A stretch of 64,000 bases of DNA from Pararhodobacter aggregans (lineage in GTDB: Bacteria > Pseudomonadota > Alphaproteobacteria > Rhodobacterales > Rhodobacteraceae), in assembly GCF_003075525.1 (NCBI RefSeq), contig NZ_QDDR01000004.1:248001-312000 (forward strand), written 5' to 3'. Both the position numbers and the translations under genes were made by a program. The notes below the pieces were generated by a model that made no database searches, had not been told where the DNA came from, and worked only from the letters and a program-made list of their open reading frames with translations. Numbering within the stretch: position 1 is the stretch's first letter; each line of letters begins with the position of its first letter. Shown here piece by piece: positions 46,947 through 64,000 of the stretch.

Positions 46947-47123
46947 TCAGTTCTTCTTCTTCACCGCGTCATAGGCGTGTTTCTCATGCCGCCAGCCGAG
47001 GATCACGGCGGCGACGATGGCGGCCAGGCACAGGCCCAGCCAGACCCCCTCGACACTGCCATAGCCGGTGAAAATGGCCCCCGAGATACCGTCCCAAGTA
47101 TTCGCGTCAAAAGGCGCTTCCAT
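46947..47123 (-). CDS. Small single-pass membrane protein downstream of amtB
   Basis: A 58-residue protein. It begins MEAPFDANTWDGISGAIF, has one membrane helix (VWLGLCLAAIVAAVILGW) and a basic C-terminal tail (HEKHAYDAVKKKN), giving an N-out/C-in expectation. AGGAAAGGAAA lies upstream of ATG 47123. It is 60 bp after amtB on the same strand, so co-transcription is likely. Function is unknown; a small partner of the ammonium channel is an attractive guess from the position. Confidence 0.7.
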   Translation of the reverse strand: MEAPFDANTWDGISGAIFTGYGSVEGVWLGLCLAAIVAAVILGWRHEKHAYDAVKKKN

Positions 47124-47183
47124 GGTGAATTTCCTTTCCTGTTGGAGGGAGGACCAGCAGAGGCGACCGCCGGTCCGCTTGCG

Positions 47184-48563
47184 TCATTCCGCCGGGCTGA
47201 CCGAAGCGTTGATCCCTTCGGGATAGGCCCGCGACGGAACCTTGACGGCATCGAGTCCCAGGATCTCGACCTCGGGCGGGACCCGCAGCTGGCCGGTGAC
47301 CTTCAGAATCAGCGACACCACATAGCCGGGCACGAAGCCCAAAAGGCCCATGGTCACCGCGCCGACCAGCTGACCCAGGAACGATGTGGTCACGACATCC
47401 TCGCCCGCCAGCGCCGGATAGCCCTGTGCGGCGATGCCGACTGCCAAGAGGCCCCACATGCCAAGGAACCCGTGAACCGCGAAGGCGCCGACCGCGTCGT
47501 CGATCCCGCGCCGCTCCAGGAACGAGGCGACGAAGGGCATGGCCGAGGCGCCGATGAAACCGATGGCAAAGGCCATGGGCGGATACCAGACATCAAGCCC
47601 CGCCGCGCAAGAGATGATCCCGCCAAGCGCGCCGGACATCATCCAGAACGGATCGCGCGTCACCATCCAGGCGCCGATGATGCCGCCAGCAAAGCCCATG
47701 ATCGTGTTGAAGGTCATGCCCGACAGCGTCATCGGCGTGCCATAGATCGTGGCGCCCATGGTGGTCGACCAGCTCCAGGCCTCGCCCGGGACGATGACGC
47801 AGGCCATCAGGAAGCCCCAGAAGCCGGCGATGATCAGCATGAGGCCGATCAGCGTCATCGGCATGGAATGCCCGGCGATCTGGTTGGCCGAGCCATCCGG
47901 GTTGAACTTGCCCACGCGCGGGCCGAGGTTCAGCAGCACCCCCAGCGTGAAGAAGCCCGCGATCATGTGCACGACCCCCGCGGCGCCGAAATCGTGGTAG
48001 CCCCATTGGGTGACCAGCCAGCCATCCGCATGCCAGCCCCAGGCGGCGGCCAGGATCCAGACGAAAGCGCCCAGCACGATGGCGAGGACCACAAAGCCCG
48101 TCAGGCGGATCCGCTCGATCAGCGCGCCCGACAGGATCGAGGCGGTGGTCGCGGCGAAAAGGACGAAGGCGCCGAAGAACACCCCCGAGGATTTGTCATC
48201 GAGGTTCGGCCCCATGAAGGCCGACCAGGGCGCCGCGACCTCGGTCGCGTAGCCGATGCCCGAGATGCCCATTGCGCCCTCGGAGCCGCTGAGGCCCGTG
48301 GGGAAGGCCCAGTAGATCCACCAGCCGATGAAATAGAAGAAGGGCACGATCATCGCGAAGGCGAGGATGTTCTTGATCCCCGAGGCCAGCGCGTTCTTCG
48401 ACCGCGAGGCGCCCATTTCATAGGCCAGGAACCCGGCATGGATCAGCACCATGAGCGGGATCGAGAGGAAGTAATAGGTTTCGGCGAAGATCGTGTTGGT
48501 TGCGGCCGCGCTCGCCTGCAACTGGGCGACCGCTTCGGCCAAGGTTGAGATGTCCGTTTCCAC
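47184..48563 (-). CDS. amtB: Ammonium/methylammonium transporter (AmtB)
   Basis: A 459-residue channel with 11 membrane segments. Signature sequences include FAETYYFLSIPLMVLIHAGFLAYEMGASRSKN, DFGAAGVVHMIAGFF (the twin-His pore His) and GFLGMWGLLAVGI (second pore His). The start is taken as GTG 48563, since AGGGAG lies 6 bp upstream and the product then begins like other members; ATGs further upstream lack ribosome sites. AmtB conducts NH4+ and also methylammonium, and it lies next to the sarcosine-oxidase-like genes of a methylamine locus. No GlnK gene is adjacent, unlike the usual glnK-amtB pair. Confidence 0.92.
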   Translation of the reverse strand: METDISTLAEAVAQLQASAAATNTIFAETYYFLSIPLMVLIHAGFLAYEMGASRSKNALASGIKNILAFAMIVPFFYFIGWWIYWAFPTGLSGSEGAMGISGIGYATEVAAPWSAFMGPNLDDKSSGVFFGAFVLFAATTASILSGALIERIRLTGFVVLAIVLGAFVWILAAAWGWHADGWLVTQWGYHDFGAAGVVHMIAGFFTLGVLLNLGPRVGKFNPDGSANQIAGHSMPMTLIGLMLIIAGFWGFLMACVIVPGEAWSWSTTMGATIYGTPMTLSGMTFNTIMGFAGGIIGAWMVTRDPFWMMSGALGGIISCAAGLDVWYPPMAFAIGFIGASAMPFVASFLERRGIDDAVGAFAVHGFLGMWGLLAVGIAAQGYPALAGEDVVTTSFLGQLVGAVTMGLLGFVPGYVVSLILKVTGQLRVPPEVEILGLDAVKVPSRAYPEGINASVSPAE

Positions 48564-49027
48564 GTGTGGCTCCCTGTCTCCAAAAGACGGCATGTCATCC
48601 AGCGTGTCGGGTTTTTGGTCTGCACCAATTACGGGAATTGGCTCACTGGACCTTTTCACTCAGGCGCCACCATCACCGTGGGTCAATTATTTTTCTTGCG
48701 AAGGGGTAGCGGCGGCGCGCTTTCCCGGGGATTCCGGCGGGGATCGGAAAAGGTGCTGAAGAAATGTGCGTTCTCGCCCGATATCCAGCAAAATAAGGAC
48801 AGGAAGCGGGGGGTTCCCCGGGCCCAGGAGGGGGGTTTCCGCTGAGTCGCCGAGTCGTTCCCGCGGCTCAGCGGGCAGCGGATTGGGCGCCCCAAAGGGC
48901 GCGCCCAGCCGTGGAAAAGGGGTGTACCAATTGGACCGGATGGACAAATTCCACCCGGTCCTTCCAGTGCATCAGGGCCGCCCCGGTGACGAGGCAGCCC
49001 CAGGTGGCGGCGTCACAAGGCCCGGGC
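48564..49027. other. 464-bp gap between soxG-like gene and amtB
   Basis: No gene. CCGCTGAG at 48839-48846 pairs with CTCAGCGG at 48867-48874 (20-base loop), a possible end structure for the soxBDAG transcript. Nearer amtB, CCAATT at 48625-48630 and AATTGG at 48636-48641 form a small dyad within an A+T-richer stretch, a candidate regulator site. A sigma54 -24/-12 pair was looked for on the amtB strand and not seen. Confidence 0.4.
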
Positions 49028-49582
49028 TCAGCCCCGGCCAACCATCCGCGCGGCGATCCCGTCCAGCGCGTGCCACAGACTCTCCGCGGCCGAGCGCATG
49101 CCCCAGATCCCCAGCCGGTCCTCGGCCCGGCGCAGGACATAGGTGCCCAGATGCTCGATCGGGCTGCGCGTGGCGCTGCCCGGGGCGAAGCGGGCCAGAT
49201 CGATATTCGCCGCGCGTTCGAGGAAGTGCTCGATGGGCGCAGCACCCGCCGATGAGGTGATCTCGAACAACACCCAGCCGTCGGTCTGTTCGGTGATCGA
49301 AGCGCCGGGCACCTTCCCCGCCAGCGTTGCCGCGACATCCGTCTCGGCCGCGCCCGGCAATTCGACCAGCCATTGCCCGGGGCCGGTCCAGATCAGCGTC
49401 AGGCCATCGGCCGCCTGCCAGCGCCCCGGACCCGGCAGGTCCAGCGCTGGCGGCGGCGTGCCGCGGCGGAGCGCCAGCGAGGCCAGACCGCACTCCGGCG
49501 TCTCGGTCAGGGTCAGCGCGCCATGGGTCACGCGGCGCGGAGTCCGGGCGCCCAGGGCGCAGAGGGGGGACAGATCAGGCAC
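49028..49582 (-). CDS. soxG: Sarcosine oxidase gamma subunit / N-methylglutamate dehydrogenase subunit D
   Basis: A 184-residue SoxG-family protein. GLTLIWTGPGQWLVELPG near residue 60, TEQTDGWVLFEITSSAGAAPIEHFL near residue 97 and RRAEDRLGIWGMRSAAESLWHAL near the C terminus are the family pattern, itself related to the GcvT fold. It overlaps the alpha-subunit gene by 8 bp and closes the BDAG operon. In the heterotetramer this subunit is structural. With MgsABC and GmaS-like genes in the locus it may belong to N-methylglutamate dehydrogenase (MgdD) rather than sarcosine oxidase. Confidence 0.85.
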   Translation of the reverse strand: MPDLSPLCALGARTPRRVTHGALTLTETPECGLASLALRRGTPPPALDLPGPGRWQAADGLTLIWTGPGQWLVELPGAAETDVAATLAGKVPGASITEQTDGWVLFEITSSAGAAPIEHFLERAANIDLARFAPGSATRSPIEHLGTYVLRRAEDRLGIWGMRSAAESLWHALDGIAARMVGRG

Positions 49583-52514
49583 GCAGGCGCCCTCCTTCGG
49601 GATCGACGAAATGGCTGGGCACGACGCGGACCGCGACCTCGCTGCCCTGCAACGGGTTGGCGGCGGTGATCACCTCGCCCATGCGGTTCGCGCCATCTTC
49701 CAGGAATGCGAGCCCGATGGACGAGCCGACATGCGGCGAATAGGCGGCCGAGGTGATCCAGCCCTGGTCATGCGCCAGATCGCGCGGCGCGCCCTGCGTG
49801 AACAGATGCGAGCCCGGCACGACCGTATCCGCCGCGTTCACGGGTTGCAGCCCGACGAGCAGGCGCTTTTCGGCCGCCAGCCCCTCGCGCCGCGACATGA
49901 TATTGCCGATCGCGTCCTTCTTGGACGAGACCATCTTGCCCAGGCCGATCATCTGGCCGGTGGTCTGGCCGTTGAGTTCCGCGCCGGCGGCATGGCCCTT
50001 CTCGATACGAAGAACCCCCAGCGCCTCGGTTCCGTAGGGCGTGGCGCCGAGGTCGGCGCCCGCCTCCATCAGCCGGGCCATCAACGCATGGCCGTAGCGC
50101 GCGGGCACCGCCAGCTCATAAGCCAGCTCGCCCGAGAAGGAGATACGGAATAGCCGTGCTCTGAGCCCGTTGCAGATGGTGAGCGGCGCGCAGGCCATGA
50201 AGGGAAACGCCTCGTTCGACAGGTCGAAACCGTCGACCAGCCGGGACAGGAGTTCGCGCGACTTGGGCCCCGCCACGGCGATCTGCGCCCAGGCGTCGGT
50301 CGTCGAGATCAGCTGCACATCCAGCTCGGGCCAGAGGCATTGCCGGGCGAATTCCATGTTGCGGTAAACCGGCCCGGCGTTGGCGGTGGTTGTGGTGACC
50401 ACGTAATGATCCTCGGCCAGACGGGCGCAGGTGCCGTCGTCATAGGCCGTGCCATCCTCGCGCAGCATGAGGCCATAGCGCACCATGCCGACCTTCAGGC
50501 TGGCCATGGCATTGGCATAGAGCCGGTCGAGGAACAGCGTCGCATCGGCACCCTGCACATCGACTTTGCCCAGCGTGGTGACGTCGCAAAGGCCGACGTC
50601 CGCGCGGACCGACAGAACCTCGCGGTCAACCGATTGGCGCCAATGGGTTTCGCCCGGGCGGACGAAATATTGTGCGCGCATCCAGGGGCCGACCTCGACA
50701 AAGGTGGCACCGTTCGCCTTGGCCCAGTGATGGGTGGGCGTCAGGCGGCGGGGGCGGAAATGCGTGCCGGTATCGCCCCCGCCCAGCACGCCCAGCGAGA
50801 CGCCGGTATAGGGCGGGCGGAAGATGGTGGTGCCGGTCTGCGGGATGGTCTTGCCGGTCAGTTCCGCCATCACCGCCAGCGCGGTGACATTGGCGGTCTT
50901 GCCCTGATCGGTCGCCATGCCCAGCGTGGTCCAGCGCTTCAGATGCTCGACCGGGCGCATGTTTTCCTTATGCGCCAGAACGATGTCCTTGACGGTCACG
51001 TCGTTCTGGAAATCGACCCAGGCGCGGCGCTTGCCGGGGACGTGCCAGATCGGCGCCGTGTTGTCGTAGCGCGCTTCGGCCCGCGGCAGCGGCAGCGCGG
51101 GCGTCGTCAGGCCCAGCTCCGCCAGCGCCTCGGTCGCAGCGCGCAGGCCATCGGCCAGCGCCTCGGCCGTGCTGCCCTTGCCGGCGCAGGCGCCCGCCGG
51201 GAACAATCCGCCCGGACCGCCCTGCCCTGGCACGAAGGCCAGGTTCCGCTCGTCCCAAACCGGCCGCCCGCGGTGATGCGAGGCGAGATGCACGTTCGGG
51301 TTCCACCCGCCCGCAACCCCCAGCGCGCCGACTTGCAGCGTGTCAGACCCGCGCGCCGTGCGCACGGTGAGGGAATGCAGGCCCAGACGGCCCTGGGTGC
51401 CGATCACATCGGCCTGGGGCAGCAGACGGTACTCGCCGTGACGCTCCACCCCGCGGCGGGCGTCGATCACCGCCGCGACCGGAATGCCCTTGGCCATGAG
51501 GTCCAGCGCCGTGCGATGGCCGTCATCGTTGTTGGTGAAGATCGCCACCGGCGCCCCGGTTCCCGGGGCGGTCGCCCAACGGTTGGCATAGGCGCGCATG
51601 GCCCCCGCCAGCATGATCCCCGGACGGTCGTTGTCGGCGAAGGGTATGTGCCGCTCGGTCGCGCCCGCCGCCAGCACCGCCCGTTTGGCGACGATCCGCC
51701 AGAGGGTCTGGCGCACCGCGCCGCCGGGGGTGGGCAGGTGGTCCGAAACTCGCTCGACCGCGCCATAGACGCCGTGGTCATAGACCCCGAAGATCACCGT
51801 CCGCGTCAGGATGCGGACGTTCGGCAGGCTTTCCAGCTCGGCCTTCACCGCGGCGACCCAATCCTGCGCCGGGGCGCCATCCAACTGGTCGCTCTCGGCC
51901 AGAAGCCTCCCGCCCAGCCGGAAATCCTCGTCCGCGAGGAGCACCTTGGCGCCCGCCCGACCGGCAGCCAGCGCCGCCGCCAGACCCGCGGGACCGGCGC
52001 CGACCACCAGGAGGTCGGCATGCAGATAGCCGCGGTCATAGGCGTCGGGATCGGGCAGTTCCGACAGCTCGCCCAACCCCGCCGCCCGGCGGATCGCTGG
52101 CTCGTAGAGCTTTTCCCAGAAGGCGCGCGGCCACATGAAGGTCTTGTAATAGAACCCCGCCGCGAAGAAGGGCGACAGCAGGTCGTTGACCGCCAGCAGG
52201 TCGAAATTCAGAGGCCCCACGTGGTTTTGCGAGCGGGCAACGAGGCCGTCGTAAAGCTCGGCCATGGTGGCGCGGGTGTTGGGTTCGGCCCGCGCACCCT
52301 CGCGCAAGGTGACCAAGGCGTTGGGCTCCTCGGACCCGGCCGAGACGATGCCGCGCGGCCGGTGATATTTGAAACTGCGCCCGACCAGCTGCACGCAATT
52401 GGCCAGAAGCGCCGAAGCCAATGTATCGCCGGGATGGCCCTGATAGCGCTTGCCGTTGAAGGTGAAGTGGATCGTCTGGCTGCGGTCGATCAGGCCGCCG
52501 GAAAGCCGTTTCAT
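49575..52514 (-). CDS. soxA: Sarcosine oxidase alpha subunit / N-methylglutamate dehydrogenase subunit C
   Basis: A 979-residue alpha subunit. The N-terminal ferredoxin-like domain starts FTFNGKRYQGHPGDTLASALLANCV. The NAD-binding core is DLLVVGAGPAGLAAALAAGRAGAKV near residue 165. The C-terminal third (from about 600) is a GcvT-type tetrahydrofolate domain with YGLMLREDGTAYDDGTCARLAEDHY, AVAGPKSRELLSRL and GTEALGVLRIEKGHA. Thus the released C1 unit can be passed to tetrahydrofolate. ATG 52514 overlaps the delta gene stop by four bases. Whether the substrate is sarcosine or N-methylglutamate cannot be told from motifs; the neighbourhood favours N-methylglutamate. Confidence 0.9.
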   Translation of the reverse strand: MKRLSGGLIDRSQTIHFTFNGKRYQGHPGDTLASALLANCVQLVGRSFKYHRPRGIVSAGSEEPNALVTLREGARAEPNTRATMAELYDGLVARSQNHVGPLNFDLLAVNDLLSPFFAAGFYYKTFMWPRAFWEKLYEPAIRRAAGLGELSELPDPDAYDRGYLHADLLVVGAGPAGLAAALAAGRAGAKVLLADEDFRLGGRLLAESDQLDGAPAQDWVAAVKAELESLPNVRILTRTVIFGVYDHGVYGAVERVSDHLPTPGGAVRQTLWRIVAKRAVLAAGATERHIPFADNDRPGIMLAGAMRAYANRWATAPGTGAPVAIFTNNDDGHRTALDLMAKGIPVAAVIDARRGVERHGEYRLLPQADVIGTQGRLGLHSLTVRTARGSDTLQVGALGVAGGWNPNVHLASHHRGRPVWDERNLAFVPGQGGPGGLFPAGACAGKGSTAEALADGLRAATEALAELGLTTPALPLPRAEARYDNTAPIWHVPGKRRAWVDFQNDVTVKDIVLAHKENMRPVEHLKRWTTLGMATDQGKTANVTALAVMAELTGKTIPQTGTTIFRPPYTGVSLGVLGGGDTGTHFRPRRLTPTHHWAKANGATFVEVGPWMRAQYFVRPGETHWRQSVDREVLSVRADVGLCDVTTLGKVDVQGADATLFLDRLYANAMASLKVGMVRYGLMLREDGTAYDDGTCARLAEDHYVVTTTTANAGPVYRNMEFARQCLWPELDVQLISTTDAWAQIAVAGPKSRELLSRLVDGFDLSNEAFPFMACAPLTICNGLRARLFRISFSGELAYELAVPARYGHALMARLMEAGADLGATPYGTEALGVLRIEKGHAAGAELNGQTTGQMIGLGKMVSSKKDAIGNIMSRREGLAAEKRLLVGLQPVNAADTVVPGSHLFTQGAPRDLAHDQGWITSAAYSPHVGSSIGLAFLEDGANRMGEVITAANPLQGSEVAVRVVPSHFVDPEGGRLRA

Positions 52515-52792
52515 GCCATGTCTCCCTTGCGCGCCAAAGACACGTCGCGCGCCAGTTCCGCGCCCAGGATCTCGTGCGTCAGCGTGTTGCGCGTGACCAC
52601 CAGCCAGGAGCGATCGCCCTGTTCGTGAAACCACAGCTCGCGGTGAACCCCGGCCGGGTTGTCCCTCAGATAGACATACTCGGCCAACTCCGCCTCATTG
52701 CCGCCGGTCGGGCGGTCGATCAGCCGCGCGTCGCCGAGATAGGTGAATTCCTGCGCGTCGCGCAGGCCGAGAAGGGGGTGCGGGATCAGCAT
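52511..52792 (-). CDS. soxD: Sarcosine oxidase delta subunit / N-methylglutamate dehydrogenase subunit B, zinc site lost
   Basis: A 93-residue SoxD-family protein: EFTYLGDARLIDRP, YVYLRDNPAGVHRELWFHEQGDRSWLVVTRNTLTHEI. In typical SoxD the N terminus reads C-P-x-C-G-x-R-x and a later H-x3-C completes a zinc site. Here the equivalents are His5-Pro-Leu-Leu8-Gly-Leu-Arg-Asp and His-x3-Asp, and the whole protein has no Cys. The zinc site is therefore absent or changed. ATG 52792 is chosen at the family start (MLIPHPLLGLRD). It lies between the beta and alpha genes. Confidence 0.85.
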   Translation of the reverse strand: MLIPHPLLGLRDAQEFTYLGDARLIDRPTGGNEAELAEYVYLRDNPAGVHRELWFHEQGDRSWLVVTRNTLTHEILGAELARDVSLARKGDMA

Positions 52793-52802: not shown

Positions 52803-54053
52803 TCAATGCAGGTTGGGTTGGGCGCCGACGCCCTTTTCATCGATCACGCGGCCCTTCGCGAACCGGTCCAGCCGGTAGGCGGTGGCCGTCTCGTGCGGGG
52901 TATCGGTAGCCAGCAGATGCGCGAAGGCATAGCCCGAGGCAGGCGTCGCCTTGAACCCGCCATAGCACCAGCCAGCGTTGAGATAGAGCCCGTCCACCGG
53001 CGTCCGGTCGATGATCGGCGAGCCGTCCATCGACATGTCCATAACCCCACCCCAACTGCGCAACAGCCGCGCGCGCCCAATCCGGGGCATCAGGGCCATG
53101 CCACCCTCGATCACATCCTCGACCACCGGCAGGTTGCCGCGTTGGGCATAGGAATTGTAGCCGTCGATATCGCCGCCAAAGACGAGACCACCCTTGTCCG
53201 ACTGGCTGACATAGAAATGACCGGCGCCGAAGGTGATGACCCCGTCAATGGCCGGCTTCAGCCCTTCCGAGACGAAGGCTTGCAAGACATGGCTCTCGAT
53301 CGGCATGCGAAGCCCCGCCTGCGCCATCACGCGCGAGGTCGAGCCCGCCACCGCCACGCCGACCTTCCTTGCGCGGATCGACCCACGGCTGGTTTCGACG
53401 CCCAGAATGCGGCCGTTTTCGATCTGCAGACCGGTAACCTCGCAATTCTGAATGATGTCGACGCCGCGCAGATCGGCGGCCCGGGCATAGCCCCAGGCCA
53501 CACCGTCATGGCGCGCGGTCCCGGCCCGGCGTTGCAGCAGGCCGCCCTTGATCGGGAAGCGGGCATTGTCGAAATTGAGCCAAGGGTACATCTTGCGGAC
53601 CCCCGCCTGATCCAGCAGCTCCGCCCCTGCCCCAGTCAGATGCATGGCATTGCCGCGCCGCCGGTAGGCATCGCGCTGCGCATCCGAATGATAGAGGTTC
53701 AGGATGCCGCGCTGACTGACCATGGCGTTGAAATTGATCGATTGCTCCAGATTCTCCCACAGCTTCATCGAGAATTCGTAGAAGGGCTGGTTACCGGGCA
53801 GCAGGTAGTTCGAGCGGATGATCGTCGTATTCCGCCCGATGTTGCCGGAGCCCAGCCAGCCCTTCTCCAGCACCGCCACTTTGCGGATGCCATAGACCTC
53901 TGCCAGATAGAACGCGGTGGCGAGCCCATGCCCGCCGCCGCCGACGATCACCACGTCATACTCGGCCTGCGGATCGGGATCGCGCCACAGGGGCTTCCAC
54001 CCCTTGTGGCCGGTCAGAGCCTCGGCAAATACCCGGAAACCGGAAAATCTCAT
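52803..54053 (-). CDS. soxB: Sarcosine oxidase beta subunit / N-methylglutamate dehydrogenase subunit A
   Basis: A 416-residue flavoprotein. The FAD dinucleotide motif is YDVVIVGGGGHGLATAFYLAE (residues 32-52). The covalent-FMN His of the family is expected in TARHDGVAWGYAR, His182 here. ILVVG-type second FAD strand and GGFKATPASGYAFAHLLAT near residue 370 complete the DAO-family pattern. It is the catalytic subunit that oxidises the N-methyl group. First gene of the BDAG operon, divergent from the GlxA-type regulator with a 105-bp shared control gap. Confidence 0.92.
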   Translation of the reverse strand: MRFSGFRVFAEALTGHKGWKPLWRDPDPQAEYDVVIVGGGGHGLATAFYLAEVYGIRKVAVLEKGWLGSGNIGRNTTIIRSNYLLPGNQPFYEFSMKLWENLEQSINFNAMVSQRGILNLYHSDAQRDAYRRRGNAMHLTGAGAELLDQAGVRKMYPWLNFDNARFPIKGGLLQRRAGTARHDGVAWGYARAADLRGVDIIQNCEVTGLQIENGRILGVETSRGSIRARKVGVAVAGSTSRVMAQAGLRMPIESHVLQAFVSEGLKPAIDGVITFGAGHFYVSQSDKGGLVFGGDIDGYNSYAQRGNLPVVEDVIEGGMALMPRIGRARLLRSWGGVMDMSMDGSPIIDRTPVDGLYLNAGWCYGGFKATPASGYAFAHLLATDTPHETATAYRLDRFAKGRVIDEKGVGAQPNLH

Positions 54054-54158: not shown

Positions 54159-55112
54159 ATGAGTGTCAAGCGTATCGCCTTCGTCCTGATCGACGGATTC
54201 GCCCTGATGTCCACCGCCGCGGCGATGGAACCCTTGCGCGCGGCCAATCACCTGTCGGGTGAGAACCTCTATGATATCCGTATCTTCGCCCCGGATCCCG
54301 GGCCGGTCCGCGCCTCGCTCGGCAGCTGGTTCGAAGCCGAGGTCCTGCCCCCCGATCCCGGCGATCTGGACATGGTCTTTGCCGTGGCCGGGGGCGATCC
54401 GCTGTCGCCGCGCGACACGCGGCTGTTTGACTGGCTCAGGCGTGTGGACCGGACCGGCGTAGCCCTTGGCGGGATCTCGGGCGGGGCGGCGGTCCTGTGG
54501 CGGGCCGGGCTCTTGGACGGGCGGCGCTTCACCATTCACTGGCATCATATGGAGGCGATGCGGGCCGAAGCGCCGCGGGCGCTGATGGAACAACGCCTCT
54601 TTGTGATCGACCGCGACCGCTACACCTGCGCGGGGGGCACCGCGCCCCTCGACATGATGCTGGCGATCATCACCCGCGACCACGGCAGCCGTTTCGCCCG
54701 GCGCATCGCCGATTGGTTCATCCAGACCGAGATGCGGCCCGCCGATGCCCCTCAGCAGGGGCGCGGTGGCCCGGGCCATGCCGCCCTGCCCGGTCCGGTC
54801 CGAGCGGCGCTTGAGCTGATGGAGACCCATGTCGCAGATCCACTGGACGTCGGTCAGATCGCCGCGCTGGTCGCGCTGTCGCCTCGCCAGTTGCAGCGCC
54901 ATTTCACCGAGAGCCTGGGCGCCCCGGTGGCCGAGGTCTATCGCAACCTGCGGCTGGACGTGGCGCGGGATCTGGTGCGCCGTTCGTCCCTCAGAATGGG
55001 AGAGATCGCACTGATGGCCGGTTTCGCCAGCCAGGCGCATTTCTCGGACGCGTTCCGCACCCGCTTCGGCCACCCTCCCCGGGACGAGCGCGAAGGCTCA
55101 GGCCAGCGGTGA
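54159..55112 (+). CDS. GlxA-family regulator (DJ-1-like domain plus AraC HTH)
   Basis: A 317-residue regulator. The DJ-1-like domain (1-190) starts RIAFVLIDGFALMSTAAAMEPLRAAN. Its elbow reads LGGISGGAAVLWRAG, lacking the Cys, so the domain is a sensor. The AraC domain (215-310) has VGQIAALVALSPRQLQRHFTESLGAPVAEVYRNLRLDVA and MGEIALMAGFASQAHFSDAFRTRFGHPP. Relatives (GbdR, SouR, GlxA) control glycine betaine, dimethylglycine or sarcosine breakdown. Divergent from the sox/mgd operon, it is probably its activator. Confidence 0.88.
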   Translation: MSVKRIAFVLIDGFALMSTAAAMEPLRAANHLSGENLYDIRIFAPDPGPVRASLGSWFEAEVLPPDPGDLDMVFAVAGGDPLSPRDTRLFDWLRRVDRTGVALGGISGGAAVLWRAGLLDGRRFTIHWHHMEAMRAEAPRALMEQRLFVIDRDRYTCAGGTAPLDMMLAIITRDHGSRFARRIADWFIQTEMRPADAPQQGRGGPGHAALPGPVRAALELMETHVADPLDVGQIAALVALSPRQLQRHFTESLGAPVAEVYRNLRLDVARDLVRRSSLRMGEIALMAGFASQAHFSDAFRTRFGHPPRDEREGSGQR

Positions 55113-55406: not shown

Positions 55407-57830
<2,424 letters not shown>

Positions 57831-57983: not shown

Positions 57984-59288
57984 TCAGATGTCGAGCGTGT
58001 TGTCCCGCTCCCAGCGCGTGAAATGGGAAACGAAACTGTTCCATTCCTTGCGCTTGAGCTTGATGTAGCTGGCCGAAAAACCGGTCCCCAGCATCGCTTT
58101 CAGCTCGTCGTCCTTGTCGAAGTTGCGGATCGCGTCCAGCAGGTTCAGCGGCAGTTTCGGCGCATCGGTGATCTGATGCCCCTCGGCATACATGTCGATG
58201 TCGTAGCGCCGCCCCGGATCGGCCTTGCAGCGCACGCCCGAGAGACCGGCGGCTATGATTACGGCCTGCAGCAGATAGGGGTTCACGGCGCCATCGGGCA
58301 GGCGCAGCTCGAACCGGCCGGGCCCGGGGACGCGCACCATGTGGGTGCGGTTGTTGCCGGTCCAGGTCACCGAATTCGGCGCCCAGGTCGCGCCCGAGGC
58401 GGTGCGCGGCGCGTTGATGCGCTTGTAGCTGTTCACCGTCGGGTTGGTGATCGCGGCCAGCGCCTCGGCGTGTTTCATGATCCCGCCAAGGAAGGTGCGA
58501 CCCTGATCGGACAGGCCCAGCTCCTTGGATTTGTCGGCGAAGACGTTGGTCTTGCCCTCATTGTCCCAGACCGAGATATGCGCGTGGCAGCCGTTGCCGG
58601 TCAGCCCCTCGATGGGCTTGGGCATGAAAGTGGCGCGCAGGCCGTGCTTTTCGGCCACCGACTTGACCATGAACTTGAAGAAGGAATGGCGGTCGGCGGT
58701 GATCAGCGCGTCGTCGTATTCCCAGTTCATCTCGAACTGGCCGTTCGCGTCCTCGTGGTCGTTCTGGTAAGGCCCCCAGCCGAGGTCGAGCATGTAATCG
58801 CAGATCTCGGCGATCACGTCATAGCGGCGCATGACCGCCTGCTGGTCGTAGCAGGGCTTCTCGGCGGTGTCGGCCTCGTCCGAGATCTGCTCGCCATCCG
58901 GCGTCAGCAGGAAGAACTCGGGCTCGATCCCGGTCTTGACGCGCAGGCCCTCCTTGGCGGCCTCGGCCACCAGCTTGCGCAGGACGTTGCGCGGCGCCTG
59001 CTCCAGCTCCTTGCCCTCCATCACGCAATCGGCCGCGACCCAGGCGACCTCGGGCTTCCAGGGCAGCTGGATGACCGAGGCGGGGTCCGGTACGGCCAGC
59101 ATGTCGGGATGCGCCGGGGTCAGATCGAGCCAGGTCGCGAAACCGGCGAAACCGGCCCCGTCCTCTTGCATATCGGCAATGGCCTGGGCCGGCACCAGCT
59201 TGGCGCGCTGTCCACCGAACAGATCGGTGTAGGAAATCATGAAATACTTTACGCCCTTGTCGCGGGCGAAGGCAGCGAGATCGGTCAT
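57984..59288 (-). CDS. gmaS: GlnT-type glutamine synthetase family, probable gamma-glutamylmethylamide synthetase
   Basis: A 434-residue protein of the GlnT (type III) glutamine synthetase family. Motifs: TGIEPEFFLL near residue 118 (first metal Glu), QFEMNWEYDDAL near residue 185 (Glu pair), NGCHAHISVWD near residue 232 (His), ASGATWAPNSVTWTGNNRTHMVRVPGPGRFELRLPDGAVNPYL near residue 300. In methylamine users GmaS, a member of this family, ligates methylamine to glutamate. The start ATG 59288 matches the family N terminus MTDLAAFARDKGVKY. It is the last gene of the amidotransferase operon and ends in a strong terminator. A plain GlnT cannot be excluded by reading. Confidence 0.78.
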   Translation of the reverse strand: MTDLAAFARDKGVKYFMISYTDLFGGQRAKLVPAQAIADMQEDGAGFAGFATWLDLTPAHPDMLAVPDPASVIQLPWKPEVAWVAADCVMEGKELEQAPRNVLRKLVAEAAKEGLRVKTGIEPEFFLLTPDGEQISDEADTAEKPCYDQQAVMRRYDVIAEICDYMLDLGWGPYQNDHEDANGQFEMNWEYDDALITADRHSFFKFMVKSVAEKHGLRATFMPKPIEGLTGNGCHAHISVWDNEGKTNVFADKSKELGLSDQGRTFLGGIMKHAEALAAITNPTVNSYKRINAPRTASGATWAPNSVTWTGNNRTHMVRVPGPGRFELRLPDGAVNPYLLQAVIIAAGLSGVRCKADPGRRYDIDMYAEGHQITDAPKLPLNLLDAIRNFDKDDELKAMLGTGFSASYIKLKRKEWNSFVSHFTRWERDNTLDI

Positions 59289-59368
59289 AGGCCTTCCTTT
59301 TTTCCCTGTTGGTGGCGCGGGCTTGTCTCCGCCCGCGTCCCCGTCATCGAATTGCCGTCGTCCCGGCC

Positions 59369-60694
59369 TCAGAAGCCCGGCTTGCCCGGGTACCAGTCGG
59401 TGCCAGCCAGCGGCACCCGCGCCATGGCGGCGGCCTCCATGGTCAGCGCACAGAGATCCTCGGGTTCGAGGTTGTGCACATGGCTCTTGCCGCAGGCGCG
59501 CGCGATGGTCTGGCACTCCAGTGTCATCACGTTGAGGTAGTTGCGCAACCGCCGCCCCGCGGCGATGGGATCGAGCCGCTTCATCAGCTCGGGGTCCTGC
59601 GTGGTGATCCCGGCCGGGTCGCGACCTTCGTGCCAATCGTCATAGGCGCCGGTGGTCGAGCCGAGCTTCTGGTACTCGCTCTCCCATTTGGGGTCATTGT
59701 CCCCCAGCGCGATCAGCGCCGCGGTGCCGATCGAGACGGCATCCGCCCCCAGTGCAAGGGCCTTCGCCACATCCGCGCCGTTGCGGATCCCGCCCGAGAC
59801 GATCAGCTGCACCTTGCGGTGCATGCCCAGGTCCTGCAGGGCCTGAACGGCGGGACGGATACAGGCCAGCGTCGGCTGGCCGACATGTTCGATGAACACG
59901 TCCTGCGTCGCCGCGGTGCCGCCCTGCATGCCGTCCAGCACCACCACATCGGCCCCGGCCTTCACCGCCAGCGCCGTGTCGTAATAGGGGCGCGCGCCGC
60001 CGATCTTGATGTAGATCGGCTTTTCCCAACCCGTGATCTCGCGCAGTTCGAGGATCTTGATCTCCAGATCGTCCGGCCCGGTCCAGTCGGGGTGACGGCA
60101 GGCCGAGCGCTGGTCAATGCCCACGGGCAGCGAGCGCATGTCGGCCACGCGCTGGGTGATCTTCTGGCCCAGCAGCATGCCGCCGCCGCCGGGCTTGGCA
60201 CCCTGCCCGACCACGACCTCGATGGCATCGGCGCGGCGCAGGTCGTCGGGGTTCATGCCGTAGCGCGAGGGCAGGTACTGGTAGACCAGCTGCGTGGAAT
60301 GCCCGCGCTCCTCATTCGTCATGCCACCGTCGCCCGTGGTGGTCGAGGTCCCGGCAGCAGAAGCGCCGCGGCCCAAGGCCTCCTTGGCATTGGCCGAGAG
60401 CGAGCCGAAGGACATGCCGGCAATGGTGATCGGGATCTTCAGCTCGATGGGCTTCTTCGCGAACCGCGTGCCCAGCGTGACCGAGGTGTCGCAGCGCTCG
60501 CGGTAGCCTTCCAGCGGATAGCGGCTGATCGAGGCGCCGAGGAACAGCAGATCGTCGAAATGCGGCACCCGGCGTTTCGCGCCACCCCCGCGGATATCGT
60601 AGATCCCCGTCGCAGCGGCGCGGCGGATCTCGGAATTGGTCTCGTTCGAGAAGGTCCACGACTGGCGCGGCAGGGTTTGGGGGGTCTTGTCCAT
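59369..60694 (-). CDS. mgsC: Glutamate synthase-like FMN subunit (MgsC/GlxD)
   Basis: A 441-residue protein equal to the central FMN/synthase domain of GltB. Marks: IPITIAGMSFGSLSANAKEALGRGA near residue 90, TTGDGGMTNEER, VVVGQGAKPGGGGMLLGQKI near residue 160, and LIVSGGIRNGADVAKALALGADAVSIGTAALIALG near residue 310. In contrast to GltB, no obvious [3Fe-4S] Cys triplet (C-x5-C-x4-C) was seen; instead there are Cys near CRHPDW and VMTLECQTIARACG, which may be the cluster. In N-methylglutamate synthase it forms N-methylglutamate from methylamine and 2-oxoglutarate-derived carbon skeleton. Confidence 0.85.
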   Translation of the reverse strand: MDKTPQTLPRQSWTFSNETNSEIRRAAATGIYDIRGGGAKRRVPHFDDLLFLGASISRYPLEGYRERCDTSVTLGTRFAKKPIELKIPITIAGMSFGSLSANAKEALGRGASAAGTSTTTGDGGMTNEERGHSTQLVYQYLPSRYGMNPDDLRRADAIEVVVGQGAKPGGGGMLLGQKITQRVADMRSLPVGIDQRSACRHPDWTGPDDLEIKILELREITGWEKPIYIKIGGARPYYDTALAVKAGADVVVLDGMQGGTAATQDVFIEHVGQPTLACIRPAVQALQDLGMHRKVQLIVSGGIRNGADVAKALALGADAVSIGTAALIALGDNDPKWESEYQKLGSTTGAYDDWHEGRDPAGITTQDPELMKRLDPIAAGRRLRNYLNVMTLECQTIARACGKSHVHNLEPEDLCALTMEAAAMARVPLAGTDWYPGKPGF

Positions 60695-60705
60695 GGGGTG
60701 GGCCC

Positions 60706-61392
60706 TCAGTACGACGCGGCGTTGTCGATGTGGAAATTGTAAAGCGTCCGGGCCGAGCCGTAGCGCTTGAACTCTTCGGGCTTGGCATCGGCGCCCGCGC
60801 GTTCCAGCAGCTCTTTCAGGATCTCGATATGCTCGGCGCGCATTTCTTTCTCGACGCAATCGGCGCCGAGGCTTTTCACCGTGCCGCGCACGAAGAGCCG
60901 AGCCTCATAAAGGCTGTCTCCCAGCGCGTCGCCCGCGTCGCCCAGCACCACCAGATTGCCACGCTGCGCCATGAAGGCGGACATGTGGCCGATGTTGCCA
61001 TGCACCACGATGTCGATCCCCTTCATCGAGATCCCGCAGCGCGAGCTGGCGTTACCCTTGATGTTCAGCAGGCCGCCATGGCCGGTGGCCCCGGCGTATT
61101 GGCTGGCATCGCCCAGGATGGTGACAACACCCGACATCATGTTCTCGGCCACGCCGGGACCGGCCGAGCCTTCGACGGTGATGCTGGCTTCCTTGTTCAT
61201 CCCGGCGGTGTAATAGCCGGTCGAGCCCTTGACGGTCACGTTCAGCGGGCCGTCCAGACCGCAGGCCATGGCATGGCTGCCGCGGGGATTGACGATGACA
61301 TAGGGTTCGTTGACCTGCGCCTTGGCGGCGGACTGCAGGGTCGTGTTGACCTCGCGCAGCTCGGTCGTGGCCATGTCGAGGGTAGTGGGCAT
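60706..61392 (-). CDS. mgsB: Glutamate synthase GXGXG-domain subunit (MgsB/GlxC)
   Basis: A 228-residue protein made of the C-terminal GltB-type right-handed beta-helix. The repeat pattern is easy to see: GPLNVTVKGSTGYYTAG, ASITVEGSAGPGVAENMMSG, VVTILGDASQYAGATG, GGLLNIKGNASSRCGISMKG, IDIVVHGNIGHMSAFMAQRG, NLVVLGDAGDALGDS. It has a structural role between the amidotransferase and synthase subunits. It starts three bases after mgsA stop and is followed 11 bp later by mgsC, so the three genes are translated together. Confidence 0.88.
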   Translation of the reverse strand: MPTTLDMATTELREVNTTLQSAAKAQVNEPYVIVNPRGSHAMACGLDGPLNVTVKGSTGYYTAGMNKEASITVEGSAGPGVAENMMSGVVTILGDASQYAGATGHGGLLNIKGNASSRCGISMKGIDIVVHGNIGHMSAFMAQRGNLVVLGDAGDALGDSLYEARLFVRGTVKSLGADCVEKEMRAEHIEILKELLERAGADAKPEEFKRYGSARTLYNFHIDNAASY

Positions 61393-61395
61393 GGA

Positions 61396-62283
61396 TCAGC
61401 GCTCCCAGAAATAGACGGTGGCGGGTTCGGGTTCCCAGACGCGGGCCCCCTCGATGCCGGGCAGATCGGCAAAGGCGCGGTACTCGCTGGCGAAGGCGAC
61501 GTAATCCTCGGTCTCGGCCATGACGGCGGGTTTGCAGGCGATCGGGTCACGGACCACGCCGAACCCGTTCTTGGTGCCGGTCACGAAGGTGAAGAAACCG
61601 TCGAGGTCCTTCAGCGTGCCTTCCAGCGCCTGGCCCAGGGTCGCACCCTCGGCAATGCGGCTGGAGATATAGGCGGCACCCACTTCGGTGTCGTTCTCGG
61701 TCTTGGTGTAGATGCCCTTTTTGGCCAGCTTGCGGCGCATGTCGTTGTGGTTCGACAGCGAACCGTTATGCACCAGGCACTGGTCCGAAGCGGTCGAGAA
61801 CGGATGCGCGCCCAGCGTGGTCACGGCGCTTTCGGTGGCCATCCGGGTGTGGCCGATACCGTGGCTGCCGCCCATGGCGCGCAGGCCGAAGCGCTCGGCC
61901 ACGTCCTTGGGCAGGCCCACTTCCTTGAAGATCTCCATGCTCTCGCCGACGCCCATGACGCGCAGCTTCCTGTCCTCGAGGAAAGCGAGCGCTGCGGCTT
62001 CGGTGTCCAGCGGCAGGGTCAGGACGGCATGCGTGTCGACGACGCGGATCGTCACCGGCGCGCCGACGGCGGCGGCCAGCGCCCCCTCGAGACCCGCGAA
62101 ATCGGTGTCGGGCGTGTCGGATTGCACGGTGATTTTCAGCTTGCCGTGTTCATCGCCATAAATCGCGATCCCGGCGCTGTCGGGGCCGCGGTCGGTCATG
62201 GTGATAAGCATGTCGGTGAGCATGTCGCCCAGCTTCGGGCGCAAGGCATCCTTCTTCAGGAACAAGCCGACGATCCCACACAT
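61396..62283 (-). CDS. mgsA: Class II glutamine amidotransferase subunit (MgsA/GlxB)
   Basis: A 295-residue Ntn-type amidotransferase. The nucleophile Cys2 is exposed after removal of Met1 (MCGIVGLFLKKD), which fixes the start at ATG 62283. Further marks are MTDRGPDSAGIAIYGDEHG near residue 32, GIGHTRMATESAVTTLGAHPFS near residue 148 (Arg for glutamine binding) and LVHNGSLSNHNDMRRKLAKKG near residue 170. It corresponds to the N-terminal domain of GltB as a separate protein and would release an amine from the gamma-glutamyl donor. First gene of the mgsABC-gmaS operon, divergent from the XRE-cupin regulator. Confidence 0.9.
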   Translation of the reverse strand: MCGIVGLFLKKDALRPKLGDMLTDMLITMTDRGPDSAGIAIYGDEHGKLKITVQSDTPDTDFAGLEGALAAAVGAPVTIRVVDTHAVLTLPLDTEAAALAFLEDRKLRVMGVGESMEIFKEVGLPKDVAERFGLRAMGGSHGIGHTRMATESAVTTLGAHPFSTASDQCLVHNGSLSNHNDMRRKLAKKGIYTKTENDTEVGAAYISSRIAEGATLGQALEGTLKDLDGFFTFVTGTKNGFGVVRDPIACKPAVMAETEDYVAFASEYRAFADLPGIEGARVWEPEPATVYFWER

Positions 62284-62342
62284 GGTTTCCTCCATCTGAT
62301 CTGGGGGGCCGCGTCTGCGGCTCTCTGCAACATGATTAGCAG

Positions 62343-62373
62343 GAAACTTTTTGTCTCGACAAGAAACTTTTGC
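62343..62373. promoter_or_regulatory. Direct repeats GAAACTTTT upstream of mgsA
   Basis: GAAACTTTT occurs at 62343-62351 and 62363-62371, exactly 20 bp apart (two helical turns). Between them is a short dyad TTGTC-TC-GACAA (62351-62362). The site is 60-90 bp upstream of the mgsA-like start. The AAACTTTTGC end resembles the AAACTTTGC arm of the palindrome at 62657-62689, so the same regulator may bind both. Confidence 0.5.
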
Positions 62374-62656
62374 GACTGGGGTGAAGAAAGTCTGCAGCAG
62401 CAGTCAGCCCGGGCGCCTGCTGCCCGGAACACCGGATTTTCAGGGCTTTGCCTGCCAAACGGGCGGAAATGGAAAGGGGATTCGGGCCCGGTTGTCCCCA
62501 ATCTGCCAGCGCCAGCGCGGCGAAAGGCACGCCGGCACGACAGCCCCGGCGAATCGCCCCCGGGCGAGTCGCCCCGCGCCTGCCCGTCGCGCGGCAAAAG
62601 GAAGCGCCGCCCCGCCCCGTTTGAGGGCAGAAGCCGGGCCAATCCCGGGGGTTTCT

Positions 62657-62689
62657 GCAAAGTCTTTGAAACTGGTTCAAAAACTTTGC
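62657..62689. promoter_or_regulatory. 33-bp palindrome upstream of the XRE-cupin regulator
   Basis: Outer arms GCAAAGT (62657-62663) and ACTTTGC (62683-62689), and inner arms TTTGAA (62665-62670) and TTCAAA (62676-62681), all share one centre at 62673. It lies 83 bp upstream of the regulator start and is a strong candidate for its operator. The rest of the gap 62284-62771 is G+C-rich and holds no recognisable gene. Confidence 0.6.
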
Positions 62690-62771
62690 ATCATGGGAAT
62701 GATCGGGGTTGCCGGGCGGATCACTGGAAAAGTCGCGCGATTGACCGTAGTGCTGAAGAGAGAGTGTCCAG

Positions 62772-63422
62772 ATGACCAAAGGCGTGGGGCCGGAAAGCGT
62801 GTCCAAGCTGACCCAAGATCCGCACAGCGTGCGCGAAGAGCGGGAAAAAATCCTCGAGGTCGCGATCGGCCGCGAGGTCCGCAACTATCGCAAGCAGCAG
62901 AACATCACCGTGGCCGAGTTGTCGAAGCTCACGGACCTGTCCATCGGCATGCTGTCGAAGATCGAGAACGGCAATACCTCGCCTTCGCTGACCACGCTGC
63001 AGACACTGGCCAATGCGCTCTCGGTGCCGCTGACCGCCTTCTTCAAAGGCTATGAGGAACGCCGACAGGCGGTGCATACCAAGGCGGGCCGCGGGGTCGA
63101 GATCGAGCGCGCGGGCACCCGGGCCGGGCACCAGTACAAACTTCTGGGACACATCGGATCCAATTCCAGCGGCGTGATCGTCGAACCCTATCTGATCCAA
63201 CTGACCTCGGAATCCGACACCTTCAAGACCTTCCAGCACGAAGGGATCGAGATGATCTACATGCTGGAGGGCAAGGTCGATTACCGCCACGGCTCGGACA
63301 TGTTCCCGCTGGAGCCGGGCGATACGCTGTTCTTCGATGCCGATGCGCCGCACGGGCCCGAACGCCTGGTGCAACTGCCTGCGCGCTACCTGTCGATCAT
63401 CAGCTACCCGCGCGAGAAGTAA
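62772..63422 (+). CDS. XRE-cupin transcriptional regulator
   Basis: A 216-residue regulator. Helix-turn-helix: IGREVRNYRKQQNITVAELSKLTDLSIGMLSKIENGNTSPSLTTLQTLANAL (residues 32-85). The C-terminal cupin domain has EGIEMIYMLEGKVDYRHGSDMFPLEPGDTLFFDADAPHGPERL (residues 155-200), with conserved His/Glu positions. It is divergent from mgsABC-gmaS and similar regulators accompany glx/mgs genes in related bacteria, so it is the probable switch for the methylamine operon. Two candidate operators are in the 488-bp gap. Confidence 0.9.
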   Translation: MTKGVGPESVSKLTQDPHSVREEREKILEVAIGREVRNYRKQQNITVAELSKLTDLSIGMLSKIENGNTSPSLTTLQTLANALSVPLTAFFKGYEERRQAVHTKAGRGVEIERAGTRAGHQYKLLGHIGSNSSGVIVEPYLIQLTSESDTFKTFQHEGIEMIYMLEGKVDYRHGSDMFPLEPGDTLFFDADAPHGPERLVQLPARYLSIISYPREK

Positions 63423-63427
63423 CGGAA

Positions 63428-63452
63428 AAGGCCCCCGGATCGCGGGGGCCTT
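63428..63452. terminator. Bidirectional terminator between convergent genes
   Basis: AAGGCCCCCG (63428-63437) and CGGGGGCCTT (63443-63452) form a perfect 10-bp stem with a 5-base loop. Short A and T runs flank it (AAAA before, TT after). It sits in the 33-bp gap between the XRE-cupin gene and the converging DUF3445 gene and likely stops both transcripts. Confidence 0.7.
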
Positions 63453-63455
63453 CGG

Positions 63456-64000
63456 TCATTTCTGCAAGGGCGGTTCGGTCTCCAGATCGGCCCAGACCCC
63501 GGGCGAGGTCGGCAGACCGTCGTCATGGCGACTGAGATAGTCGATCATCAGCGGGCGATTGGCAATGAAGCCCTTATAGGTGGCCAGTTCCTCGGGCAGG
63601 TCGCGGATCACCCGATGCAGGCGGCGGCCCCATTTCGGCACGGTCACCAGATCCTGAAAGGCGATCAAATAGCAGCGGATCGGGAAGACCAGCGCATTGG
63701 ACCGCGGCAGCCGGTAGAAGGTCTGCAATTCGACCCTCAGATGCTGCTTGGCGCCGATGTTCTCTGCCGTGAGTTCGGTCTTCTGGATGCCCCATTTGTG
63801 GTAATTCTCGGGGCTGGTATCCAGCAGCGGATTGACCGTCATAGTCCAGTTCAGCCGCCGCGCCGGGGCGCCCTGCTGCACATTCATCAGGAATTTCAGC
63901 GCGCGCTTGAAGATCCCCAGCTCGTGCGCCAGCGGCACCGGGGCGTGCCACTCGAAGAAATTCATGCCGATGTCGAAATCGAGCGACCAGTCGGCCTGCG
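63456..64000 (-). CDS. DUF3445 / heme-dependent oxidative N-demethylase-like protein, C-terminal part (cut by window end)
   Basis: The frame is open to the window edge; at the edge it reads QADWSLDFDIGMNFFEWHAPVP. The visible part (about 180 residues) has the DUF3445 marks: WSLDFDIG...HAPVP, ARRLNWTMTVNPLLD, LRVELQTFYRLPRSNALVFPIRCYLIAF, and PEELATYKGF. This family includes the alpha subunit of heme-dependent oxidative N-demethylase and subunits of the dimethylamine monooxygenase (Dmm), which remove a methyl group from dimethylamine. An internal ATG at 63965 is not the true start. Position next to the N-methylglutamate genes supports a methylated-amine role. The full gene and partner subunits lie beyond the window. 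Confidence 0.78.
   Translation of the reverse strand, partial: QADWSLDFDIGMNFFEWHAPVPLAHELGIFKRALKFLMNVQQGAPARRLNWTMTVNPLLDTSPENYHKWGIQKTELTAENIGAKQHLRVELQTFYRLPRSNALVFPIRCYLIAFQDLVTVPKWGRRLHRVIRDLPEELATYKGFIANRPLMIDYLSRHDDGLPTSPGVWADLETEPPLQK

What the first reader, a model, noticed from the sequence alone, without database searches (positions are those of the whole stretch)
46947..64000. Nearly complete dimethylamine-to-C1 pathway assembled in one locus
Seen: amtB, SoxBDAG-type genes, GlnT/GmaS type, three glutamate-synthase-like subunits, and a DUF3445 gene in 17 kb. Known: the N-methylglutamate pathway uses GmaS, MgsABC and MgdABCD (SoxBDAG homologues), and DUF3445-type enzymes demethylate dimethylamine. 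Inference: this locus turns dimethylamine into glutamate plus a tetrahydrofolate-bound C1 unit. Formate-tetrahydrofolate genes are not in the window.
Basis: partly seen in the sequence, partly recalled or inferred. Interest (0 to 1): 0.75.

Follow-up and report, generated by a model that had tools for sequence, protein, structure and literature searches.

The report
Methylamine-eating gene island, known kind

Summary
Window 47184-64000 encodes an Amt-type transporter, MgdABCD, GmaS, MgsABC and the 3' part of a DUF3445 gene. Past base 64000 the same contig carries dmmB, dmmA, dmmD, eight serine-cycle genes and tdm. fhs, folD and tmm lie on contigs that share 127-bp ends; a Pararhodobacter contig carries tmm to gmaS unbroken. 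So the system probably runs from trimethylamine to the serine cycle. It is not new: PMC4543880 describes such methylotrophy islands in Paracoccus and Roseobacter, and PMC5520151 showed dmmABC activity. Differences are small: serine-cycle genes directly before dmmD, an AraC-mgd module unlike the Ruegeria one, and an inserted hybrid histidine kinase. Function is inferred; I have no growth or enzyme data for this host.

The parts
47184..48659 (-). amtB-type ammonium/methylammonium transporter
   Evidence: PF00909 E 1.3e-58; 80% and 83% relatives in the DmmC loci L005 and L006
49028..49582 (-). mgdD (SoxG-like) subunit, N-methylglutamate dehydrogenase
   Evidence: soxG 44 bits, below cut-off 144; operon position
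49575..52514 (-). mgdC (SoxA-like) subunit with folate-binding GCV_T domain
   Evidence: TIGR01372 1286 bits over cut-off 1164; PF01571
52511..52792 (-). mgdB (SoxD-like) subunit; Cys positions of the TSOX delta chain replaced
   Evidence: PF04267; alignment to 1vrq_D/2gag_D
52803..54053 (-). mgdA (SoxB-like) subunit
   Evidence: TIGR01373 687 bits over cut-off 529; tree with gmaS-linked copies
54159..55112 (+). AraC/GlxA-type regulator divergent from mgdA
   Evidence: PF12833, DJ-1_PfpI; divergent from mgdA also in L004, L043, L130, L131, L133
55407..57830 (+). CHASE-PAS hybrid histidine kinase, insertion not seen in L004
   Evidence: domains; no room between gmaS and araC of L004
57984..59288 (-). 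gmaS, gamma-glutamylmethylamide synthetase
   Evidence: 64.6% to RhGmaS 7cql, 11 of 11 residues checked kept, tree
59369..60709 (-). mgsC, glutamate-synthase-like FMN subunit of N-methylglutamate synthase
   Evidence: PF01645 1.5e-86
60706..61392 (-). mgsB, GXGXG subunit
   Evidence: PF01493
61396..62283 (-). mgsA, glutamine-amidotransferase-like subunit
   Evidence: PF13522/PF13537
62772..63422 (+). XRE-cupin regulator between dmmC and mgsA
   Evidence: PF01381, PF07883; hit in 73 of 80 DmmC loci
63456..64000 (-). 3' part of dmmC (DUF3445/HODM alpha); gene continues beyond the window to about L003:1523
   Evidence: PF11927 226 bits; HODM 5lte 460 bits

Best explanation
A methylated-amine catabolism island ('methylotrophy island') of a bacterium near Pararhodobacter (host inferred from the closest named loci). 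Inferred flow: TMA is oxidised to TMAO by Tmm; Tdm demethylates TMAO to DMA; DmmABC (haem-dependent oxidative demethylase) oxidises DMA to MMA and formaldehyde, with DmmD probably passing the C1 to tetrahydrofolate; GmaS joins MMA to glutamate using ATP; MgsABC makes N-methylglutamate; MgdABCD oxidises that to glutamate and CH2=H4F, so nitrogen ends as ammonium. The C1 unit is oxidised by FolD with Fhs or PurU, or assimilated by the serine cycle (GlyA, Ppc, HprA, MtkA, MtkB, Sga, Mcl, Gck). Shown here: gene content, order, homology, conserved residues, phylogenetic placement. Inferred: activities, substrates, regulation, growth.
For: Curated cut-offs passed (bits, cut-off): GmaS family 678 (469.6), SoxA 1286 (1164), SoxB 687 (529); Tdm 1226 (1100), Tmm 842 (675), DmmA 112.5 (60), malate-CoA ligase beta 738 (604). 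GmaS residues and tree. MgdA tree. DmmC is 460 bits to solved HODM 5lte; Tdm 1207 bits to solved TMAO demethylase 9q59; Tmm 916 bits to 5gsn, named flavin-containing monooxygenase. P. aminovorans plasmid II holds gmaS (glnT), tdm, dmmDABC, AraC, mgdABCD, folD and serine-cycle genes in one stretch. One CCB-MM2 contig holds tmm to gmaS in the order found here. fhs, folD, purU and ccr are in the genome. Literature: dmmABC activity in E. coli (PMC5520151), dmm mutants in P. aminophilus (PMC4543880), tmaR control in R. pomeroyi (PMC13390433).
Against: No growth, expression or enzyme data for this host. SoxD-, SoxG- and Amt-type proteins miss their NCBIfam cut-offs. Mcl, Gck, HprA and DmmD match related families below cut-off, and the Sga protein had no Pfam hit at 0.001, so those names rest on operon context. 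The MgdA clade also holds copies outside a methylamine context (L131, L132), so clade membership does not fix the substrate. The solved 'glutamate-methylamine ligase' 9qur lies just outside the window's GmaS group. The tmm/fhs link crosses a collapsed repeat and is not resolved in the assembly.
Confidence: 0.92

Rival explanations
1. The SoxBDAG genes are a true sarcosine oxidase (betaine/choline catabolism under a GbdR-like AraC regulator), placed next to a GlnT-type glutamine synthetase; no N-methylglutamate pathway.
For: Family names are sarcosine oxidase; the AraC protein's best NCBIfam hit is GbdR (244 bits, cut-off 480); best PDB hits of the SoxA- and SoxB-like proteins are TSOX chains.
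Against: MgdA falls in a 48-row clade (100/100) with gmaS/mgs-linked copies such as L011 and R. etli p42e, while TSOX, the plasmid copies L134 and L135 and the genome's own C9 copy fall outside; GmaS residues and tree; the genome has a separate copy on C9 with the delta-subunit Cys motif kept.
Confidence: 0.04
2. The locus serves mainly nitrogen scavenging from methylated amines (energy and N, little carbon assimilation); the adjacent serine-cycle genes are for other purposes.
For: The R. pomeroyi growth tests that I read used methylated amines as sole N source with glucose (PMC5520151, first part of the text); an Amt transporter is in the cluster.
Against: Serine-cycle genes lie in the same run of about 35 kb, malate-CoA ligase is over its cut-off, crotonyl-CoA carboxylase/reductase for glyoxylate regeneration is present (622 bits, cut-off 379), and the same paper's introduction says Roseobacter-clade bacteria can use these compounds as sole C and N source.
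Confidence: 0.2
3. The Mgd module here has another N-methyl amino acid or heterocycle-derived substrate (for example in homarine breakdown) and was recruited with its own AraC regulator.
For: Its nearest MgdA relatives include a plasmid copy with no gmaS in the stretch seen (L131, beside hutG and formimidoylglutamate deiminase); the AraC is 28% to the AraC of L011; PMC13390433 cites Mgd in homarine catabolism (passage read).
Against: The same 5-row sub-clade (96/95) holds L130 (P. aminovorans) with gmaS, tdm and dmm nearby, and L043 with gmaS/mgs nearby.
Confidence: 0.06

Closest known systems
Ruegeria pomeroyi methylated-amine/serine-cycle island (SPO1548-1588 region; PMC5520151, PMC13390433, PMC4543880)
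   Same: In the R. pomeroyi strain examined, the run hprA-mtkB-mtkA-sga-luxR-mcl-gckA-globin-tdm-folD-folD-fhs has the order found here (L151); dmmD-dmmA-dmmB-dmmC-XRE too (L011).
   Different: Here dmmD follows glyA and mgsABC-gmaS follows dmmC; in L011 mgs-gmaS lies between glyA and dmmD. mgdC is 64%, mgdD 41% and AraC 28% identical, and AraC is divergent from mgdA here but at the mgdD end in L011.
Paracoccus aminovorans JCM7685 plasmid II cluster (NZ_LN832560)
   Same: glnT/gmaS, GntR, binding protein, an FAD oxidoreductase in the place of tmm (my naming), tdm, dmmDABC, GlxA-type AraC divergent from mgdABCD, folD, XRE, ammonium transporter, glyA-ppc-hpr-mtkB-mtkA.
   Different: Other gene order, plasmid-borne; mgsABC not in the stretch shown; mgdA 84%, mgdC 73%, AraC 48% identical.
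Pararhodobacter sp. CCB-MM2 contig NZ_LRRR01000002 (L007, L146, L147)
   Same: tmm-fhs-folD-tdm-globin-gckA-mcl-luxR-sga-mtkA-mtkB-hprA-ppc-glyA-dmmDABC-XRE-mgsABC-gmaS in the order found here.
   Different: No hit to mgd, AraC or the histidine kinase in the next 17 kb after gmaS (L148).

Membership tests
N-methylglutamate pathway (gmaS-mgsABC-mgdABCD) | GmaS with Asp177, Glu186, Arg312 and with Ala48/Trp300 where glutamine synthetase has Asp/Glu | tested here: met
   11 of 11 positions checked equal to RhGmaS, 64.6% identity; residue roles from passages of PMC7948447
N-methylglutamate pathway (gmaS-mgsABC-mgdABCD) | GmaS groups with proven GmaS, not glutamine synthetases | tested here: met
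   16-row group with 7cql at 100/99; the genome's 7 other relatives outside; 25 of 73 collected rows used. No separately proven GlnT was a row
N-methylglutamate pathway (gmaS-mgsABC-mgdABCD) | three mgs and four mgd subunit genes | tested here: met
   soxD- and soxG-type subunits below their NCBIfam cut-offs
N-methylglutamate pathway (gmaS-mgsABC-mgdABCD) | Mgd subunit apart from solved sarcosine oxidase | tested here: met
   48 rows against 4, 100/100; long branches in the smaller group
N-methylglutamate pathway (gmaS-mgsABC-mgdABCD) | growth on methylamine / enzyme activity | not testable with these tools
   no strain or assay
Dimethylamine monooxygenase DmmABC(D) | DUF3445 haem subunit, DmmA, flavin-ferredoxin reductase and GcvT-type DmmD in one run of genes | tested here: met
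   order D-A-B-C in this genome
Methylotrophy island (Dziewit 2015) | C1 substrate oxidation, CH2=H4F oxidation and serine-cycle genes in one cluster | tested here: inconclusive
   substrate oxidation and serine cycle on one contig, with the 3' end of folD at its edge; full folD and fhs linked only through 127-bp shared contig ends of a repeat, contiguous in CCB-MM2
Heterotetrameric sarcosine oxidase (TSOX) | Cys motif of the delta subunit (CPxCG and later GC) | tested here: not met
   HPxLG and GD here and in 47 of 52 delta sequences in all; 4 of 52 keep CPxCG (the genome's other two copies, a Shinella plasmid copy, and R. etli's gmaS-linked copy), 1 is cut off there. The Zn role of these Cys is recalled, from no call

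The most novel reading that the evidence does not exclude
The island has been rewired: an AraC-mgdABCD module of another lineage and an inserted CHASE-PAS hybrid histidine kinase took the place of the Ruegeria-type TmaR control, so that methylated-amine breakdown here answers to an extracellular signal and not only to a downstream catabolite. A further part would be that this Mgd accepts other N-methylated substrates.
Probability: 0.08. Interest if true: 0.35.

Novelty: new member of a known kind. Interest (0 to 1): 0.15.

Why it matters
It gives a clear, almost whole example of how methylated amines (abundant marine nitrogen compounds and aerosol precursors) are taken to ammonium and cell carbon by one set of genes, and shows that database labels 'sarcosine oxidase' and 'GlnT' here most likely mean N-methylglutamate dehydrogenase and GmaS. 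The biology itself was already described in Paracoccus and Roseobacter.

Tried and rejected
Sarcosine oxidase reading: rejected by the MgdA tree, the GmaS tests and the presence of a separate copy on C9.

Loss of the delta-subunit Cys motif as a marker of Mgd: rejected, because R. etli's gmaS-linked copy keeps it.

Hybrid histidine kinase as a conserved part of the island: rejected; in 80 DmmC loci only 3 partial hits at 33-34%. Long relatives (64-88% identity; the G022 one split over the two ends of a contig) occur in 5 of 17 other same-genus genomes. In the short stretches held around them (L153-L157, 3.2-5.4 kb) the only hits besides the kinase itself were a second kinase hit in L155 and a 27% XRE hit in L154.

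A first motif count of the delta subunit and of MgdA used faulty patterns and was repeated. The FMN-His motif HDxVAW is in 51 of 51 rows. A Lys pattern was faulty; the simpler GGxKxxP is in 51 of 51. The roles of that His and Lys are recalled, not from a call. Rows with under 80% coverage were dropped before the MgdA tree and these counts (number not printed). In one search one folD query was dropped because my reading of it was out of frame, so a second folD may be missed there.

Literature searches: Pararhodobacter with methylamine/trimethylamine (1,327 papers hold two of three terms, 12 listed, none of those 12 with 'Pararhodobacter'), methylotrophy island with serine cycle (listing of 9), N-methylglutamate dehydrogenase with sarcosine oxidase and structure (listing of 2). 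I make no claim that this lineage is unreported.
Full report
WHAT IS THERE. The window is G000:C4:248001-312000 of a 5.08-Mb, 32-contig genome. From the window end down to 47184, one search gives: 3' part of dmmC (DUF3445), XRE-cupin regulator (+), mgsA, mgsB, mgsC, gmaS, hybrid histidine kinase (+), AraC-type regulator (+), mgdA, mgdB, mgdC, mgdD, amtB. The two small Sox subunits and the Amt protein match their NCBIfam families below the curated cut-off (soxD 78 of 116.5 bits, soxG 44 of 144, amt 210 of 343).

BEYOND THE WINDOW. The next 19 kb held of the same contig (L003; ORFs) carry the rest of dmmC, then dmmB, dmmA, dmmD, glyA, ppc, hprA, mtkB, mtkA, sga, a LuxR-type gene (+), mcl (+), gckA (+), a globin gene and tdm. 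DmmA (112.5 bits, cut-off 60), malate-CoA ligase beta (738, cut-off 604) and Tdm (1226, cut-off 1100) pass their cut-offs; GlyA, PEP carboxylase, the second CoA-ligase subunit and the globin match Pfam. HprA, Mcl, Gck and DmmD match related families below cut-off, and the Sga protein had no Pfam hit, so those names rest on context. The contig ends 238 bases after L003, with the 3' end of folD at its edge.

CONTIG ENDS. Contig C28 (3916 bp: fhs and two folD) shares exact 127-bp ends with C4 and C19 on one side and with C18 and C21 on the other. I read it as a repeat present at least twice; the assembly does not say which neighbours pair. C18 ends in tmm (842 bits, cut-off 675), with a binding protein, a GntR regulator and an Amt-type transporter before it. 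C21 and C19 begin with what I read, by eye, as housekeeping and pilus genes. In Pararhodobacter sp. CCB-MM2 the order Amt, GntR, binding protein, tmm, fhs, folD, tdm, globin, gckA, mcl, luxR, sga, mtkA, mtkB, hprA, ppc, glyA, dmmD, dmmA, dmmB, dmmC, XRE, mgsA, mgsB, mgsC, gmaS lies on one contig, which makes the C18-C28-C4 neighbourhood likely but not proven. The genome also holds purU over its cut-off (317, cut-off 286) and crotonyl-CoA carboxylase/reductase (622, cut-off 379).

IS IT GmaS? TIGR03105 passes (678, cut-off 469.6), and the window gene is the only one of 9 genome matches over the cut-off. Against crystallised RhGmaS (7cql) identity is 277 of 429 aligned positions (64.6%), and all 11 positions checked are equal, including Ala48 and Trp300, where glutamine synthetases have Asp and Glu, and Asp177, Glu186, Arg312 (residue roles from passages of PMC7948447). 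In a tree of 25 rows (picked from 73) it sits in a 16-row group (100/99) with 7cql and with two proteins annotated glnT from clusters with dmm and mgd genes; the genome's 7 other relatives lie outside, and the solved 'glutamate-methylamine ligase' 9qur just outside. No separately proven GlnT glutamine synthetase was among the rows.

IS IT Mgd OR SARCOSINE OXIDASE? The best solved relatives of the SoxA- and SoxB-like proteins are TSOX chains, but none of the PDB hits listed there is named N-methylglutamate dehydrogenase, so that alone does not decide. In a 52-row MgdA/SoxB tree the window protein lies in a 48-row clade (100/100) with copies linked to gmaS/mgs, among them the R. pomeroyi-strain locus L011 and R. 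etli p42e. TSOX, L135 (beside a ring-hydroxylating dioxygenase and a BCCT transporter, which I read as betaine genes), the Shinella plasmid copy L134 and the genome's C9 copy form the other side. Long branches on that side make its inner order unsure. Against a narrow reading: the clade also holds L131 (beside hutG and formimidoylglutamate deiminase) and L132, which lack gmaS in the stretch seen, and the genome's third copy (C2).

SYNTENY. With my proteins as queries, hits are found for dmmB in 80 of 80 loci, dmmA 79, dmmD 77, XRE-cupin 73, amtB 69, mgsA 62, mgsB 62, gmaS 61, mgsC 61, AraC 53, mgdC 45, mgdA 44, mgdB 44, mgdD 43, tdm 8. Many loci are cut, so linkage may be higher; a few of the hits are weak and may be unrelated paralogues. 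The run mtkA-mtkB-hprA-ppc-glyA directly before dmmD appears in 2 of 80, L004 (a MAG, 99% DmmC identity) and L007 (CCB-MM2).

WHAT DIFFERS. (1) The AraC regulator is 27-33% identical to the best AraC hit in 49 of 53 loci that have one, and 55-92% in 4; it is divergent from mgdA in L004, L043, L130, L131 and L133, unlike L011. PMC13390433 (abstract, passages and section 20 read) describes TmaR in R. pomeroyi and a second clade under 35% identity; ours, at 28% to the L011 protein, would fall there, which I did not test with their sequences. (2) A CHASE-PAS-HisKA-HATPase-REC hybrid kinase sits between the convergent gmaS and AraC genes, where L004 has about 60 bp. (3) The delta subunit has HPxLG/GD where TSOX has CPNCG/GC; so do 47 of 52 delta sequences collected, this one included.

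HOW IT MOST LIKELY WORKS. TMA to TMAO (Tmm), TMAO to DMA (Tdm), DMA to MMA plus formaldehyde (DmmABC; activity of the R. pomeroyi genes shown in E. coli, PMC5520151, first part of the text and passages read), formaldehyde to CH2=H4F (DmmD, a hypothesis cited in PMC4543880, passage read), MMA to gamma-glutamylmethylamide (GmaS), N-methylglutamate (MgsABC), then glutamate plus CH2=H4F (MgdABCD), and C1 oxidation or serine-cycle assimilation. For this genome all steps are inferred from homology.

NOVELTY. PMC4543880 (passages and section 17 read; [quoted passage not shown] N5, R. pomeroyi DSS-3 and L. methylohalidivorans, covering C1 substrate oxidation, CH2=THF oxidation and assimilation. The locus is a new member of that kind with minor rearrangement. 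Interest 0.15.

Noticed in passing
window 55407-57830: CHASE-PAS hybrid histidine kinase between convergent gmaS and araC; no room for it in the near-identical locus L004; long relatives in 5 of 17 other same-genus genomes.
   Followed up: partly
window 52511-52792; L133, L134, L136, L137: Delta (SoxD-like) subunit lacks the paired Cys motif of TSOX in 47 of 52 sequences collected; kept in R. etli's gmaS-linked copy, a Shinella copy and the genome's other two copies.
   Followed up: partly
L003:16164-~16560: Bacterial (truncated) globin gene just downstream of tdm; globin hits also beside tdm in CCB-MM2 (L146), L150 and R. pomeroyi L151. Its role in an oxygen-using demethylation pathway is unknown to me.
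   Followed up: partly
G000:C28 (L116): A 3.9-kb unit with fhs and two folD genes, apparently present at least twice in the genome and breaking the assembly at four contig ends.
   Followed up: partly
G000:C1:739068-739748 (L120): Second DUF3445 gene (158 bits); none of my Dmm queries hit its 19-kb surroundings. Beside it an M24-family protein, 702 bits to 4rzy, which I recall as DMSP lyase DddP.
   Followed up: partly
G000:C9:111530-114445 and C2:420495-423407: Two further SoxA-type alpha subunits over cut-off in the genome, each with SoxB- and SoxD-like neighbours.
   Followed up: partly
L003 ~13100-13817: LuxR-type regulator between sga and mcl, with hits at the same place in L004's contig, CCB-MM2 and R. 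pomeroyi; candidate serine-cycle regulator.
   Followed up: no
window 45722-46809: Two adjacent small ORFs that look like a RES-type toxin and its Xre-like antitoxin partner (by eye, from no family search).
   Followed up: no
window 41281-44827: O-antigen ligase-like, UDP-ManNAc dehydrogenase-like and UDP-GlcNAc epimerase-like ORFs below the island's lower edge (by eye).
   Followed up: no
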